Below, in pieces: positions 45,137 to 49,427 of a stretch of 64,000 nucleotides of DNA (within the stretch, counting starts at the first letter, position 1; every line of letters begins with the position of its first letter). The translations under genes and the position numbers were made by a program. The DNA lies in the NCBI RefSeq assembly GCF_001445655.1, contig NZ_LNBE01000002.1:744001-808000 (forward strand), read 5' to 3'. This DNA comes from Streptomyces roseifaciens. Its GTDB lineage: Bacteria; Actinomycetota; Actinomycetes; Streptomycetales; Streptomycetaceae. Below the pieces are notes generated by a model, which was not told the DNA's origin, made no database searches, and was given only the letters and a program-made list of their open reading frames with translations.

Positions 45137-46759
45137 TCAGGACACGAGGTGCTGCTCCTCCAATTCGGTCAGTTTCACGGTGCACAGACCCCCGCGCTCG
45201 GTCGTTACGCCCGTCACCTTGAGCTGTGTGCCCGGCGAGAGGATGAATTCCTCCTCGCCGGTGAAGGCGGAGAACCTGCTGATGCCCACGGCCCGGGCGG
45301 GTACCACCTCGAAGAGCGTCCGCTTGCCGCGGCTGCCGAGGAATGCCTGCGCCACGCTGAGCTTGGGCGTGCACGACGACACGCCCCACCAGGTCACGGT
45401 CCGACCGAGCGGGTACTGCGCGCGCAGGTCCAGCGATACGCCACGCCACAGCGGTTCGGTACGGGCGGGAAGCTGCGAAACCGCCGAGAACAGCAGCCGC
45501 AGGTAGGGGAGATACGGGACGATTCTGTCCCGGTCCGGGGAGCGCAGGACCTTGTTGATTTCCCGGTAGAACGCGGACTCACAGGTGTAGAGGTAGAGGG
45601 CGGCAATCGCGTCGGCGGACAGGCTGCCGTTGCCGACTGCTTCGTCCGCCCGCCGCTTGCCGAAATCGTGCGACAGGTCGACGTGCCGGTTGAGACCGGA
45701 CAGCAGCTTGGCGACCGGGGCGACGGCGTCGCGGAACTCCATGAGCGGGGTGTCGAACACGCCGGTGATCGCGGGGAGGGCGAGGCCCTCGTCCTTGACG
45801 CTGGAGAGCCGTTCGAGGTAGAGCTGGTGCAGCTCCATGGTGGACGTGATGAACGCGCCCATGCGGTCGGCGACGCCGTCGTCCGTCCCGCCGGCCCCCT
45901 CCGCGAGCTTGTTCCAGCCCTTGCTCGGCAGCCAGTCGATCTGGTCGGCGCCGAGCGATGCGAGGGCATCGTTCACCATTCCGAAATGGTCGCCGTCGCA
46001 GAAGATGTCGCCCTGCGCCGCGGGGTTGGGGTGGTCGATGTGCCGGACGTCGACGTCGGGGTACTTCTCCTGGAGCCGGAGGACGATCTTCTTGAGACTG
46101 CGTGCGTGAGCACCCCACCATGCGAAGACGACGCCGCGGTCCTCCTCGTCGGCGTTCTGCTTGGCCTTGAGGATCTCCTCGACGATCCGCTCGGCGACCG
46201 GGCGCCAGAATGCGGTGTGCGGGTCGGCTCCCCTCGCTCCCTCACTGCTCGCGGTGAGTGCCGCGTTCAGCAGCAACACGCCCTGCGTGAGCATCGCCTG
46301 GAACCACTCCGGCGGTTGGACGGTGTCCTGCTTCTTCAGCAGCGCACGAATGTCGGCGATAGGGGTCTTCTTGGGAATCCCGTACTTCCACATCGCCGCT
46401 GCCTTGATGATGCAGCGGATGCTGACGACCCTGCCGAACTGGCTGTCCTTCCAGTCGTGGAAGGTGTTGTCGAACATGGCGATGCCGGTGGCGCTTTCCG
46501 GCCGCGGATACGGGTTCTGCCCGAATATGACGACCTTCCACTTGTGCGGTGGATTGGGCTTGAGCGCCTGAAAGGTCAGTTCGCGGACGGGGACGACTTC
46601 CGGTCCCCGACCCGGGCCGATGAACCTGGCTGCGTCCGGCTGTGCCTCGATAACCGGCTTCAGGAGCGGAAGCCACGGTTCACCGCCGCCTTTGAACAGT
46701 TCGGTGAGGGCCAGAGGGTCATTCGGGTCGGGCTGGGCCGGGTTGTTGGCATCGCTCAT
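45137..46759 (-). CDS. Uracil-DNA-glycosylase-like / ADP-ribosyltransferase fusion
   Basis: 540 aa, two domains. Residues about 20-280 follow family-1 UDG throughout: motif A G80-Q-N82-P-Y-P85 (GQDPYH in Ung), GVLLLNAALTASSEG, VVFAWWGAHARSLKK, H243-PNP (HPSPLS in Ung) and DHFGMVNDALASLGADQIDWLP. The general-base Asp is Asn82, so base excision may be lost or weak. Residues about 300-540 are an ART: helix LYLYTCESAFYREINKVLR, R439 (LWRGV), S461-S462-C, and E502-E-E504-FILSPG. The likely role is ADP-ribosylation guided by a DNA-binding module (inference). The start ATG 46759 has GGAG ten bases upstream. Divergent from a macro-domain gene, the classic antidote type for ADP-ribosylation. Confidence 0.85.
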   Translation of the reverse strand: MSDANNPAQPDPNDPLALTELFKGGGEPWLPLLKPVIEAQPDAARFIGPGRGPEVVPVRELTFQALKPNPPHKWKVVIFGQNPYPRPESATGIAMFDNTFHDWKDSQFGRVVSIRCIIKAAAMWKYGIPKKTPIADIRALLKKQDTVQPPEWFQAMLTQGVLLLNAALTASSEGARGADPHTAFWRPVAERIVEEILKAKQNADEEDRGVVFAWWGAHARSLKKIVLRLQEKYPDVDVRHIDHPNPAAQGDIFCDGDHFGMVNDALASLGADQIDWLPSKGWNKLAEGAGGTDDGVADRMGAFITSTMELHQLYLERLSSVKDEGLALPAITGVFDTPLMEFRDAVAPVAKLLSGLNRHVDLSHDFGKRRADEAVGNGSLSADAIAALYLYTCESAFYREINKVLRSPDRDRIVPYLPYLRLLFSAVSQLPARTEPLWRGVSLDLRAQYPLGRTVTWWGVSSCTPKLSVAQAFLGSRGKRTLFEVVPARAVGISRFSAFTGEEEFILSPGTQLKVTGVTTERGGLCTVKLTELEEQHLVS

Positions 46760-47079
46760 TGTGGAGGTACTCCGAATTATCGAACCGTGCTGATGGAGAC
46801 ATGGTTGGTGAGGCGAATGGTGGGCGAGTTCCGCGCAAAAGTACTGAATGCGACAAGAGGGGGCAGGAGCCCCAAGCGCCGTGCGTGCAGGCCGGTGGGC
46901 TCTCGTCGGAGTGTCGGAGGTCAGGGCTGACCTGCGGAAATCTGGCGGCAGGCTAGCACCGGGTCGGTGCGCTCGCAATCGTGACGGCGGGTCACGAACC
47001 ACCGCCGCCAGCGCCGTTGTCAGTGGGGCAAGGTAGCTTCGTGAGTGGTCGAAGGACCGGTTGCCGATAGGAGTGCACT
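46760..47079. promoter_or_regulatory. Divergent regulatory region of the UDG-ART / macro pair
   Basis: 320 bases without a convincing gene on either strand. The ends near both start codons are comparatively A+T-rich (for example CCGAATTATCG at 46772-46782). AGGAG at 47069-47073 serves the macro gene. No clear palindromic operator was found, so the partner may regulate by protein rather than by a dedicated repressor. Confidence 0.5.
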
Positions 47080-47757
47080 ATGACCGTGAACCGCATGCAG
47101 TCCCCGCTCAGGGTGGTGCTGACCGACATCAACACCAAGGTGGTGGAGGCATGGCGGGCGGCCTTCGCCGACACCCCCGGGATCGAGATCCGCAAGGGCT
47201 CGATCCTCGATGAGAACGTCGATGCCTGGGTCACCCCGACCAATTCCCGTGGCCGGATGGACGGCGGGGTCGACGCGGCCATCAAGCGGCACCTCGGCGC
47301 GGGAATCCAACTGCGCGTTCAGCGCGCGATCCGCGACCAGTTCGCGGGAAGCCTCCCGGTGGGCGGTGCGGTGTGCGTGCCGTCCGGGGCGGTCAATCCG
47401 AAGTTCCTGATATCGACGCCCACGATGGAAACGTCCTCGCAGAACGTGAGTGAAACCTTGAATGTGGCCCTGGCGTGCGCCGCCGCATTCCAGGCGATCC
47501 ATCGGAAGAACAAGGAGGCGCCGGGCAGCATCGAGTCGGTGGCGCTGGTCGGCATGGGCGCCCAGACCGGCCGGGTGCCGGCACGAGTGTGCGCCAACCT
47601 GATGTGGACGGGCCACACGCTCTTCAACGACTACTACTTCGATGACTACGACGACCTGCGCAGCACGATCATCGGGCAACTCGACGACATCGAGAACGCA
47701 CCTGTCGAGCAGCGGGTACGCATCGAGCCGCCCAAGGGTTCGGCTTCCCGTCGCTGA
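47080..47757 (+). CDS. Macro-domain protein, putative antitoxin
   Basis: 225 aa. IEIRKGSILDENVDAWVTPTNSRGRMDGGVDAAIKRHLG contains the macro-domain ADP-ribose-binding core (TPTNSRGRMDGGVD at residues 52-65, matching the VNAANxxxxGGGGVDxAI pattern). VGMGAQTGRVPARVCANLMW matches the second, phosphate-binding loop. Macro domains bind or hydrolyse ADP-ribose; DarG-type ones remove it from DNA. The C-terminal 25 residues are charged. ATG 47080 has AGGAG upstream. Its divergent placement next to an ART fusion implies that it reverses or restrains that activity; this is inferred from context. Confidence 0.88.
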   Translation: MTVNRMQSPLRVVLTDINTKVVEAWRAAFADTPGIEIRKGSILDENVDAWVTPTNSRGRMDGGVDAAIKRHLGAGIQLRVQRAIRDQFAGSLPVGGAVCVPSGAVNPKFLISTPTMETSSQNVSETLNVALACAAAFQAIHRKNKEAPGSIESVALVGMGAQTGRVPARVCANLMWTGHTLFNDYYFDDYDDLRSTIIGQLDDIENAPVEQRVRIEPPKGSASRR

Positions 47758-48023: not shown

Positions 48024-49421
48024 CTAAACGCGCACAGCCGAATGTTCCCGCGCCACAGCGACGATGCGCTCCCGCAGCCGCTCCACGCACAGGAGCATGT
48101 TTCTGTGCGCGACGTCGGTGTCCGGATAGCGGCTGGCGAACTGCAAGCCCTCGTGGAGCCGGGTGGTCCACATGCACACCTGGTCGCCGTACGAAACCCG
48201 GATCAGCCCGTACGCCTTCTGGTCCTGCCACAGCTCCGACCCGGGGATGACGCGCGCGTCGGCGAACGAGACGATCGAGTACAGGTCCGGGGACGTGGGC
48301 CGGAAGTCGGATCCCAGAAGGCGGAGCATGCGGGCGATGGGAATCCGCGACATCTGCCGGTTCTCGCGCAGCGCGGCGCGGACCATCGCGAGTGCGCTGT
48401 CGAAGTCGGGCGCCTGGGCCACGGGAATCTCGATCGGTGCGCCGCCCACATACCAGCCCACCGAGTCCGACCACTGGGATTTCGCCCTGGTGTGGAACGG
48501 GACGACGGTGCGGTACACCTGCTGCCCGCCGATCTCGTGAACAATGAGGGCGATGGTTGCGAGGATGCCGACCAAGCTGCCGCCGTACGGGCGGCAGTAC
48601 GCCTCGAACGCTGCTGCCTCCGTATCGTCCGCGAGCATCTCGTGCATGAACTTCTGGACCGGCAGCGGGCCTTCGGGGTCGAGCCCGAGATCGACGGGGA
48701 AGTTCGGCAGTTTCCCGTCGCACCGGGCGATGAACTCTCTCCAGCGGGAGACGATCGCGTGCGTGTCGTCGATCCGATCGGCTTCCGTACGCTCGGCTGC
48801 GCTGAAGTCGACATAGCTGGCGACCGGGGTGGCATCCACGGAGCGGCCTTCGAGGCCGGCCGAGTAGAGATCGTGTAGCTCACTGGGGATTCGCTGGATC
48901 GAGTACGCATCGACGTTGCTGTGGTCGAACGCCATGTGCACGCTGGTGCAGTCGTCCCGGACGACTGCGGCGAAGAGGAAGTTCGGCCAGACGAGCGCGT
49001 TCGCCACGACGTCGAAGCGATCCTGGAGGTACTGGGTCAGCGTCGCCGTGTCGGGAAAGTCACCGACGTCTTGGCGCTGCAGCATGACGTCGTCGGCGCC
49101 CAGCGTGAAGCGCCGCATGTCGTCGCCTGTCCAGCGGAATCCGCTGCGTAGCGTCTCGTGCCGGAGCGTCCATGTCTGCAGAGCGACGTGGAGGACGTCG
49201 AGGTCGACTTTTCCCGGGATGTCGAATGCCGTGCCGAGCCAGGTGGGTACGAACAGGCCGTCCTGGCGGACCGATCGCGCCGTACGGACGTGGGATTCCT
49301 GAACGTACGCGGGTGGACGGGAATCGTCCGGCAAGCTCATCGCGGCTTCGACGGAGGACGGATGGAGCGTCCATTCCACGACACGGCCGGGTCGGATCTC
49401 GCATCGCTGAATCTCGGTCAT
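48024..49421 (-). CDS. Stand-alone condensation-domain protein (copy 2)
   Basis: 465 aa. Same family and layout as 16881-18281: an N-terminal EIRPGRVVEW (copy 1: EIAPGHVFEW), FDIPGKVDLDVLHVALQTWTLRHETLRSGF and the late WYVGGAPIEIPVAQAPDF. The active-site motif is D166-H167-SNV-D171-A172, keeping His and Asp but lacking the first His and the Gly. Catalysis is therefore less certain than in copy 1. ATG 49421 (GTG 49427 also possible) has GGAGAG upstream. A long hairpin sits just before the gene. No NRPS genes are near; role unknown, perhaps an acyltransferase. Confidence 0.82.
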   Translation of the reverse strand: MTEIQRCEIRPGRVVEWTLHPSSVEAAMSLPDDSRPPAYVQESHVRTARSVRQDGLFVPTWLGTAFDIPGKVDLDVLHVALQTWTLRHETLRSGFRWTGDDMRRFTLGADDVMLQRQDVGDFPDTATLTQYLQDRFDVVANALVWPNFLFAAVVRDDCTSVHMAFDHSNVDAYSIQRIPSELHDLYSAGLEGRSVDATPVASYVDFSAAERTEADRIDDTHAIVSRWREFIARCDGKLPNFPVDLGLDPEGPLPVQKFMHEMLADDTEAAAFEAYCRPYGGSLVGILATIALIVHEIGGQQVYRTVVPFHTRAKSQWSDSVGWYVGGAPIEIPVAQAPDFDSALAMVRAALRENRQMSRIPIARMLRLLGSDFRPTSPDLYSIVSFADARVIPGSELWQDQKAYGLIRVSYGDQVCMWTTRLHEGLQFASRYPDTDVAHRNMLLCVERLRERIVAVAREHSAVRV

Positions 49422-49427
49422 TCGCAC

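What the first reader, a model, noticed from the sequence alone, without database searches (positions are those of the whole stretch)
45137..47757. UDG-fold/ADP-ribosyltransferase fusion divergently paired with a macro-domain protein: candidate new DNA-targeting toxin-antitoxin or defence system
One protein joins a nearly complete family-1 uracil-DNA-glycosylase fold to an R-S-E type ART domain, and its divergent neighbour is a macro-domain protein. Established knowledge: DarT-type toxins ADP-ribosylate DNA and DarG-type macro domains reverse it; ART toxins and macro antidotes co-occur. A UDG-like module in front of the ART would give a new way to recognise DNA, for example uracil-containing phage DNA or a modified base. 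I know of no named system with this composition. Function is inference; the domain calls come from the sequence.
Basis: partly seen in the sequence, partly recalled or inferred. Interest (0 to 1): 0.94.

Follow-up and report, generated by a model that had tools for sequence, protein, structure and literature searches.

The report
DNA-damage-linked ADP-ribose writer–eraser gene pair
In this genome of the Streptomyces kind a gene joins a predicted uracil-DNA-glycosylase fold, whose cutting residue is replaced, to an ADP-ribosyl-transferase domain, and it sits back to back with a macro-domain gene that carries a promoter sequence of the DNA-damage type; the pair likely reads damaged or uracil-containing DNA and would put a removable ADP-ribose mark on nearby proteins.

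Summary
A 540-aa UDG-fold + R-S-E ART protein (45137-46759, minus) lies divergent to a macro-domain gene (47080-47757, plus). The pair is real: of 246 Streptomyces genomes 42 carry the fusion and the same 42 the macro gene; the other 204 lack both (one holds an ART scrap). Of 54 regions with both genes, 23 are divergent, 13 tandem, 18 one open frame.

Two results change the interpretation. (1) The UDG catalytic Asp is never Asp (0 of 319 readable motifs, Asn in 300), while the uracil-contacting Asn is kept: a predicted reader, not a cutter. The ART loop is the arginine type, not that of base-targeting ScARP. (2) A RecA-independent DNA-damage promoter ends 40 bp before the macro start; its relaxed form precedes macro in 71 of 79 divergent and 42 of 42 tandem/fused regions (0.14 expected). 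Here the strict motif also precedes recA, uvrB, dnaX and ung.

Best reading: a damage-regulon ADP-ribosylation writer-eraser module with a non-cutting UDG reader. Substrate, toxicity and induction are untested; the window's UDG-ART gene itself shows no motif copy. Database-labelled relatives occur in eukaryotes and, with VWA, in two deltaproteobacterial MAGs.

The parts
45137..46759 (-). UDG-fold + ART fusion gene, 540 aa (ATG at 46759, stop included)
   Evidence: ORF; homologues of similar length
45905..46717 (-). UDG-fold domain (about residues 15-285)
46505..46522 (-). altered UDG motif A, GQNPYP (canonical GQDPY; Asn82 in place of the catalytic Asp)
   Evidence: canonical motif
46016..46033 (-). 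altered UDG motif B, HPNPAA (canonical HPSPLS)
   Evidence: canonical motif
45158..45655 (-). R-S-E ADP-ribosyltransferase domain (about residues 369-534; R439, S461/S462, E502-x-E504)
45248..45271 (-). ARTT loop SAFTGEEE (X-X-phi-X-X-E-X-E)
47080..47757 (+). macro-domain gene, 225 aa
   Evidence: PF01661; fold
47242..47274 (+). macro catalytic loop N55-x6-GGV-D65 (MacroD-type signature)
47017..47039 (+). RecA-independent (RecA-NDp / PafBC-type) DNA-damage promoter motif TTGTCAGTG-N8-TAGCTT, ending 40 bp before the macro start codon
   Evidence: consensus
46760..47079 (.). shared intergenic region between the two start codons

Best explanation
The pair is a predicted ADP-ribosylation writer and its macro-domain partner, with a DNA-damage-type promoter motif in front of the macro gene, in which a UDG fold whose catalytic Asp is replaced likely holds on to uracil-containing or otherwise damaged DNA and would bring the attached ART domain to arginines of proteins there, while the macro protein is predicted to remove or restrain the mark. 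SHOWN by sequence: the domain make-up, the replaced catalytic Asp with retention of the LLxN Asn, the intact R-S-E/E-x-E ART site, the fixed pairing (divergent, tandem or in one open frame), and the promoter motif. INFERRED: DNA binding without cutting, arginine as the acceptor, hydrolysis by the macro protein, induction by damage, and the biological purpose (a local, reversible damage signal that works like a PARP but is built from other parts). In the window's own layout only the macro gene has a recognisable copy of the motif, so damage would there raise the eraser, and the writer might be made all the time; in tandem and fused loci one promoter would serve both.
For: Pairing: fusion in 43 of 246 Streptomyces genomes at E <= 1e-20, one of them (G090) only a 68-residue ART scrap; macro gene in exactly the other 42 and in 0 of the remaining 204. 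Arrangement: of 59 regions read, 23 divergent, 18 in one open frame, 13 tandem, 5 with only one gene in reach; of 80 species-representative loci 63 divergent (one, L147, labelled convergent by the script because the two gene heads overlap), 7 fused, 6 tandem, 4 without macro. One fused copy is annotated as a single CDS (801 aa) on a Streptomyces record labelled plasmid. Neighbours: at the thresholds used no other family recurs in more than 4 of 80 loci. UDG: motif A readable in 319 of 374 sequences (overlapping sets), catalytic position N 300, S 15, T 2, C 1, A 1, D 0; LLxN motif found in 332 of 374; a canonical ung and a second UDG-like gene of the same genome keep GQDPY. ART: sixth and eighth ARTT residues E and E in 300 of 300 readable; sixth Glu goes with arginine targets. 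Promoter: TGTCR-N11-TAnnnT upstream of macro in 71 of 79 divergent and 42 of 42 tandem/fused unique regions, shuffled means 0.06 and 0.08; real flanking DNA 9 hits in 3,384,606 strand-bases, i.e. 0.03 per 79 regions. The strict motif occurs 16 times in this 8.6-Mb genome, its reversed control 0 times; genes behind it include recA, uvrB, dnaX, ung, a RarA-like ATPase and an AlkZ-like glycosylase.
Against: No activity, toxicity, DNA binding or induction was measured. The UDG-ART gene of the window has no motif copy of its own (best score -15.6 against 33.6 on the macro side); upstream of UDG-ART the relaxed form is seen in 27 of 79 divergent loci, and 6 of 79 divergent loci have it on neither side. 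MacroD-, PARG- and ALC1-type macro domains are not known to act on arginine links (passages of PMC10951314), so the predicted writer and eraser do not obviously match chemically; the second MacroD signature is absent. The motif B His is Tyr or Asn in at least two distant relatives (P0265, P0323). The two deltaproteobacterial MAG relatives have VWA in front and no match to this macro in 10.4 and 7.3 kb. One macro copy (L175) has a stop codon inside the match. Only 17% of the Streptomyces genomes carry the pair, so it is accessory, which suits a defence role as well.
Confidence: 0.5

Rival explanations
1. A toxin-antitoxin or abortive anti-phage system: the UDG-ART is a toxin switched on by phage or uracil-rich DNA, and the macro protein is its antidote (works like DarTG).
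For: The fusion is never found without macro among 42 Streptomyces carriers; a two-gene cassette with no other recurrent neighbours at the thresholds used; patchy, and on two Streptomyces records labelled plasmid; in the window the damage promoter serves the would-be antidote; fused toxin-antitoxin proteins are known in general (recalled).
Against: No PADLOC match for the fusion at E <= 1, only E 0.02 to DarG for the macro; no phage record covers 80% of the fusion (38 records with partial matches, the 25 listed all in the UDG part) and two IMG/VR scans found no relative; the antidote alone is never seen either (0 of 204); the promoter is of the damage regulon.
Confidence: 0.25
2. The ART modifies nucleic-acid bases, for example the uracil that the UDG fold flips out, and the macro protein removes ADP-ribose from the base.
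Against: ARTT sixth residue is Glu, not the Gln of base-targeting ScARP; the macro catalytic loop is MacroD type, and a MACROD homologue is set against the active SCO6735 in that paper's uracil-ADPr test.
Confidence: 0.12
3. A decoy: the inactive UDG fold senses phage inhibitors of uracil-DNA glycosylase (Ugi, p56, SAUGI types) and then releases the ART.
For: UNG fold; UNG structures solved with such inhibitors are among the listed matches; catalytic loss fits a decoy.
Against: The pocket motifs are strictly conserved, which a decoy surface alone would not need; database-labelled eukaryotic relatives with lysine-rich starts; damage promoter.
Confidence: 0.05
4. An ordinary repair fusion: the UDG half still cuts uracil out, using Asn as TDG/MUG-type enzymes do, and the ART signals the cut.
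For: Asn at the catalytic place is used by the MUG/TDG family (recalled); same promoter motif as canonical ung.
Against: Ser, Thr, Cys or Ala stand there in 19 of 319; the motif B Leu and the stacking Phe are also changed.
Confidence: 0.08

Closest known systems
DarTG (DNA ADP-ribosyltransferase toxin + macro-domain antitoxin)
   Different: ART is of the R-S-E, PF01129 kind with a UDG domain in front; no PADLOC DarT match; arginine-type loop; damage-type promoter; forms in one open frame
SCO6735 of Streptomyces coelicolor (macro-domain hydrolase under a RecA-NDp promoter)
   Same: macro protein behind the same promoter type; SCO6735 is UV-induced and its endogenous transferase is reported as unknown (passages of PMC9411070)
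   Different: SCO6735 is of the TARG1/DarG subgroup and its upstream neighbour is an amino-acid permease; the macro gene here has the MacroD loop and a fixed ART partner
Family-1 uracil-DNA glycosylase (UNG)
   Different: catalytic Asp, stacking Phe and intercalating Leu all replaced
Eukaryotic arginine-specific mono-ARTs (ART2.2) and Tre1-type toxins
   Different: joined to a UDG fold; secretion signals were not searched for
PARP-type DNA-damage ADP-ribosylation
   Same: proposed logic (lesion reader + ADP-ribose writer + macro eraser); some relatives carry WWE or VWA domains, which also occur in PARP proteins (recalled)
   Different: R-S-E, not H-Y-E, active site; UDG fold as reader; bacterial

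Membership tests
Active family-1 UDG (Ung) | motif A GQDPY with catalytic Asp | tested here: not met
   0 of 319 readable motifs have Asp; 55 of 374 sequences had no readable motif
Active family-1 UDG (Ung) | motif B HPSPLS (intercalation loop) | tested here: not met
   HPNPAA in the window; [NH]PAA pattern found in 329 of 374, at least two of these (L132, L160) at another place
Active family-1 UDG (Ung) | UNG fold | tested here: met
R-S-E ART (PF01129) | Arg, Ser-Thr-Ser-like motif and Glu | tested here: met
   L[WYF]RGV in 303 of 374, WWxxSS in 303 of 374, E-x-E in 300 of 300 readable
R-S-E ART (PF01129) | arginine-type ARTT loop (sixth residue Glu) | tested here: met
   SAFTGEEE; rule from PMC7827354, section headed 6
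R-S-E ART (PF01129) | NAD-dependent transferase activity | not testable with these tools
   needs an enzyme assay
MacroD-type hydrolase | catalytic loop Nx6GG[V/L/I] | tested here: met
   window N55SRGRMDGGV; V or L at the last place in 226 of 251 macro proteins (220 counted by pattern, 6 more read from the printed rows), T or A in 24, one (L081) has no loop in its matched part; signature
MacroD-type hydrolase | diphosphate loop G[V/I/A][Y/F]G | tested here: not met
   the loop that aligns there reads VG[ML]GAxTG in 251 of 251
DarTG | DarT-family ART | tested here: not met
   no PADLOC match for the fusion at E <= 1
DarTG | DarG macro antitoxin | tested here: inconclusive
Toxin-antitoxin system | toxin tolerated only with its antidote | not testable with these tools
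   co-occurrence fits but toxicity was not measured
RecA-independent (PafBC) DNA-damage regulon | TTGTCRGTG-N8-TAnnnT promoter | tested here: met
   47017-47039; strict form in 68 of 121 unique macro upstream regions, relaxed form in 113 of 121
RecA-independent (PafBC) DNA-damage regulon | induction by DNA damage | not testable with these tools
   needs RNA measurement; the pafBC genes of this genome were not looked for
PARP (H-Y-E ART) | H-Y-E triad | tested here: not met
   R-S-E by Pfam family and motifs

The most novel reading that the evidence does not exclude
An ancient, non-PARP DNA-damage ADP-ribosylation system shared by bacteria and some eukaryotes: a glycosylase fold turned into a uracil or lesion reader drives an R-S-E transferase, a macro partner (in actinomycetes) erases the mark, and the unit belongs to the PafBC damage regulon. 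It would be a lesion-guided ADP-ribosylation switch in bacteria and a candidate kind of writer for the damage-induced macro proteins of Streptomyces.
Probability: 0.35. Interest if true: 0.93.

Novelty: new variant of a known kind. Interest (0 to 1): 0.85.

Why it matters
ADP-ribosylation in the DNA-damage response is the textbook role of eukaryotic PARPs (recalled); in bacteria it is mostly discussed as toxin-antitoxin or warfare chemistry. Here an actinobacterial pair ties an ADP-ribosyltransferase to a glycosylase-fold domain and to the DNA-damage promoter motif that also precedes recA, uvrB and ung in the same genome. For the S. coelicolor macro hydrolase SCO6735, which has the same promoter type, the endogenous transferase is reported as unknown; a writer linked to the same regulon makes the question 'do bacteria mark damaged DNA sites with ADP-ribose?' directly testable. 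The natural one-frame fusions give a ready-made protein for structure and biochemistry.

Tried and rejected
LexA/SOS box in the intergenic regions: 9 of 76 regions within two mismatches of CGAAC-N4-GTTCG against 6.8 expected from shuffles, so no excess. Phage carriage: 38 phage records gave partial matches, none covering 80%; two IMG/VR scans gave no relative. The macro part of the fused model was poor, so the macro was folded alone (mean pLDDT 75.5). A 2.3-kb gap between the divergent genes of L061 holds an ORF that I read by eye as a sigma-factor gene, not family-searched. A second promoter in front of UDG-ART: strict matrix 6 of 79 divergent loci, relaxed form 27 of 79, none in the window. 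The relaxed form was chosen after seeing the regions, although it follows the published consensus; shuffles kept base content only. The unique regions are related to one another, so their counts are not independent.

Papers: ten searches; the two that asked for uracil-DNA glycosylase together with ADP-ribosyltransferase and macro domain + phage, or fusion + domain architecture, returned 0 papers. The library holds no bioRxiv preprints and lacks most subscription journals. What was seen: PMC7827354 passages and the section headed 6; PMC10951314 passages; PMC9411070 passages; PMC13036486 abstract, outline and passages; PMC5656591 and PMC8223512 passages; PMC11804915 passages; PMC10359453 passages; PMC9503650 passages, with 0 occurrences of uracil or UDG (50); all others as search listings only. 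Recalled, from no call: residue numbers and roles of E. coli/human UNG residues, Asn use by MUG/TDG, VWA, WWE and WGR in PARPs, fused toxin-antitoxins.
Full report
WHAT IS THERE. The window lies in a genome of 8.6 Mb (G000:C2:744001-808000); that it is a Streptomyces rests on its nearest named homologues (95% identity, Streptomyces aureoversilis). The divergent neighbour, 47080-47757, is a 225-aa macro-domain protein.

THE PAIR IS A UNIT. In 246 Streptomyces genomes (E <= 1e-20) the fusion was found in 43, of which one (G090) is a 68-residue remnant of the ART; the macro gene was found in the other 42 and in none of the 204 remaining genomes. In G120 and G041 the pair or the fusion is split over contig ends. 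A scan of GTDB representatives found 205 loci, of which the best 80 were kept: 63 divergent, 7 fused, 6 tandem, 4 without macro. Of these four, two begin 7 and 71 bases from a contig end (L170, L156) and two are a Myxococcaceae and a Deltaproteobacteria MAG (L114, L153) in which a von Willebrand A domain stands in front of UDG-ART in one protein of 1076 or 1039 aa. The two sets overlap (9 identical UDG-ART sequences). A macro-UDG-ART protein of 801 aa is annotated as one CDS on a plasmid record of Streptomyces sp. Caat 7-52. On a tree of 124 distinct UDG-ART sequences all 24 fused copies fall, with 16 of the 17 tandem ones, in one supported set of 41 rows, and need at least 5 changes of label (3 forced by well supported branches); the 78 divergent copies are spread over the rest (quick method, root not inferred). 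Apart from the pair, the most recurrent neighbour family occurs in 4 of 80 loci. So a two-gene cassette is inherited and moved as such.

Distribution beyond. Of 394 genomes of the class, 14 matched, in 4 of 137 genera, one only as a fragment. In 246 genomes of the phylum the macro query found 2, both Streptomyces. A search with the UDG half alone (the 120 best of 223 listed) returned proteins labelled Planctomycetota, Acidobacteria, the choanoflagellate Salpingoeca rosetta (UDG + ART, 61% identity, lysine-rich start), the haptophyte Prymnesium and a Symbiodinium-type dinoflagellate; two metagenome proteins join a WWE domain (an ADP-ribose-binding domain) to the UDG fold. These labels come from the databases.

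THE UDG HALF IS A PREDICTED READER. Family-1 UDGs have GQDPY (active-site residue) and HPSPLS (intercalation loop). Here motif A was readable in 319 of 374 sequences (overlapping sets; the others are fragments or vary more); the Asp place is Asn in 300, Ser in 15, Thr 2, Cys 1, Ala 1 and never Asp; the place of the stacking Phe is Met in 304, His in 12, other in 3, never Phe. Motif B is mostly xxNPAA, putting Ala where the intercalating Leu stands (alignments). The Asn of LLxN that contacts uracil (recalled) was found in 332 of 374. A canonical ung and a second UDG-like gene of the same genome keep GQDPY. Strict conservation of an altered pocket speaks for a working non-cutting pocket rather than decay; that it binds uracil is inference.

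THE ART HALF LOOKS LIKE A PROTEIN-ARGININE ENZYME. The ARTT loop reads SAFTGEEE, exactly X-X-phi-X-X-E-X-E. According to PMC7827354 (section read) Glu at the sixth place goes with arginine in Ia, Gln with asparagine in C3 and with guanine in ScARP. E and E were found in 300 of 300 readable loops.

THE MACRO PROTEIN. It has the MacroD catalytic-loop signature Nx6GG[V/L/I] quoted in PMC10951314: V or L in 226 of 251, T or A in 24, loop outside the matched part in one; it lacks the second MacroD signature. The same paper states that there is no evidence that the three classical hydrolase classes act on arginine links. Writer and eraser thus do not match by known chemistry; this is an open point and I count it against the simple model.

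THE PROMOTER. The commonest k-mers of 76 unique divergent intergenic regions spell TTGTCAGTGG. This is the RecA-independent damage promoter, published as tTGTCRgtg-8 nt-TannnT (PMC5656591), called RecA-NDp, present in Actinobacteria and closely resembling the PafBC motif (PMC8223512). In the window it is TTGTCAGTG-GGGCAAGG-TAGCTT at 47017-47039, ending 40 bp before the macro start. The strict form precedes the macro gene in 35 of 79 divergent and 33 of 42 tandem/fused unique regions, the relaxed form TGTCR-N11-TAnnnT in 71 of 79 and 42 of 42, with shuffled means of 0.06 and 0.08 and 9 hits in 3,384,606 strand-bases of flanking DNA. In the UDG-ART direction the relaxed form is found in 27 of 79 divergent and 0 of 42 tandem/fused loci, and 6 of 79 divergent loci have it on neither side; the window has none on the UDG-ART side. 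Positive control: the strict motif occurs 16 times in this genome, its reversed control 0 times. The ORFs picked behind the 16 are canonical ung, the macro gene, recA, uvrB, dnaX, a RarA-like AAA ATPase (below model cut-offs), ribosomal protein S6, an AlkZ-like DNA glycosylase, a WGR-domain protein, a SWIM-zinc-finger protein, a mycothiol-dependent isomerase-family protein, and five without a family call, two of which (L186, L192) were scanned in neither library. All 121 Streptomyces genomes searched have the motif, with at most 2 control hits each. The pafBC genes themselves were not looked for.

INTERPRETATION. The simplest reading is a damage-regulon writer-eraser pair: a non-cutting UDG fold would locate uracil or abasic sites, the ART would mark arginines of proteins there, and the macro protein would clear or limit the mark. 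The one-frame form in 18 of 54 two-gene regions says that eraser and writer can be parts of one molecule. In the window the damage promoter serves the eraser, which could mean that the writer is always present and the eraser is raised to end or to survive the response; the same fact also suits a toxin with a damage-raised antidote. I give the damage-signal reading 0.5, the toxin-antitoxin or defence reading 0.25, base modification 0.12, an active repair enzyme 0.08, a decoy 0.05.

KNOWN OR NEW. Two full-text searches that combine uracil-DNA glycosylase with ADP-ribosyltransferase and further terms returned no paper. The nearest described case is SCO6735, a macro hydrolase of another subgroup, UV-induced, behind the same promoter type, with an unknown endogenous transferase (passages of PMC9411070). 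As a kind, reversible ADP-ribosylation modules are known (DarTG, PARP/PARG); a UDG-fold reader, natural macro-UDG-ART fusions and a damage-regulon promoter make this a new variant.

Noticed in passing
L184 (G000:C2:33114-33136): The canonical uracil-DNA glycosylase gene of the same genome has the same strict damage-promoter motif, ending 38 bp before its start.
   Followed up: yes
L190 (G000:C4:978251-978273): A WGR-domain protein with a beta-propeller-like part lies behind the same damage promoter motif; WGR is otherwise known from PARPs (recalled), so it may be another ADP-ribose or damage component.
   Followed up: partly
L196, L197, L199, L189: Further ORFs without clear family (one with a SWIM zinc finger) lie behind strict damage-promoter motifs and are candidates for new damage-regulon members.
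   Followed up: partly
L114:4387-7617 and L153:2756-5875: VWA-UDG-ART proteins of 1076 and 1039 aa in a Myxococcaceae and a Deltaproteobacteria MAG; no match to this macro protein in the DNA held.
   Followed up: partly
P0302, P0303: Metagenome proteins that join a WWE domain to the same altered UDG fold.
   Followed up: partly
P0265, P0278, P0294, P0305, P0318: Relatives labelled as choanoflagellate, haptophyte, dinoflagellate and marine-eukaryote transcripts; P0265 and P0278 have lysine-rich starts that look like nuclear signals (by eye).
   Followed up: partly
L061:8000-10325: A sigma-factor-like gene (by eye) and a second ORF sit between the otherwise divergent macro and UDG-ART genes.
   Followed up: partly
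L088 (G090) and L098 (G591): Short ART remnants without a match to the macro gene, apparently dead copies.
   Followed up: no
L175: The macro match of this Nocardia locus contains one stop codon.
   Followed up: no
window 48024-49427: A condensation-domain protein lies next to the macro gene; no neighbour family recurs in more than 4 of 80 other loci.
   Followed up: no
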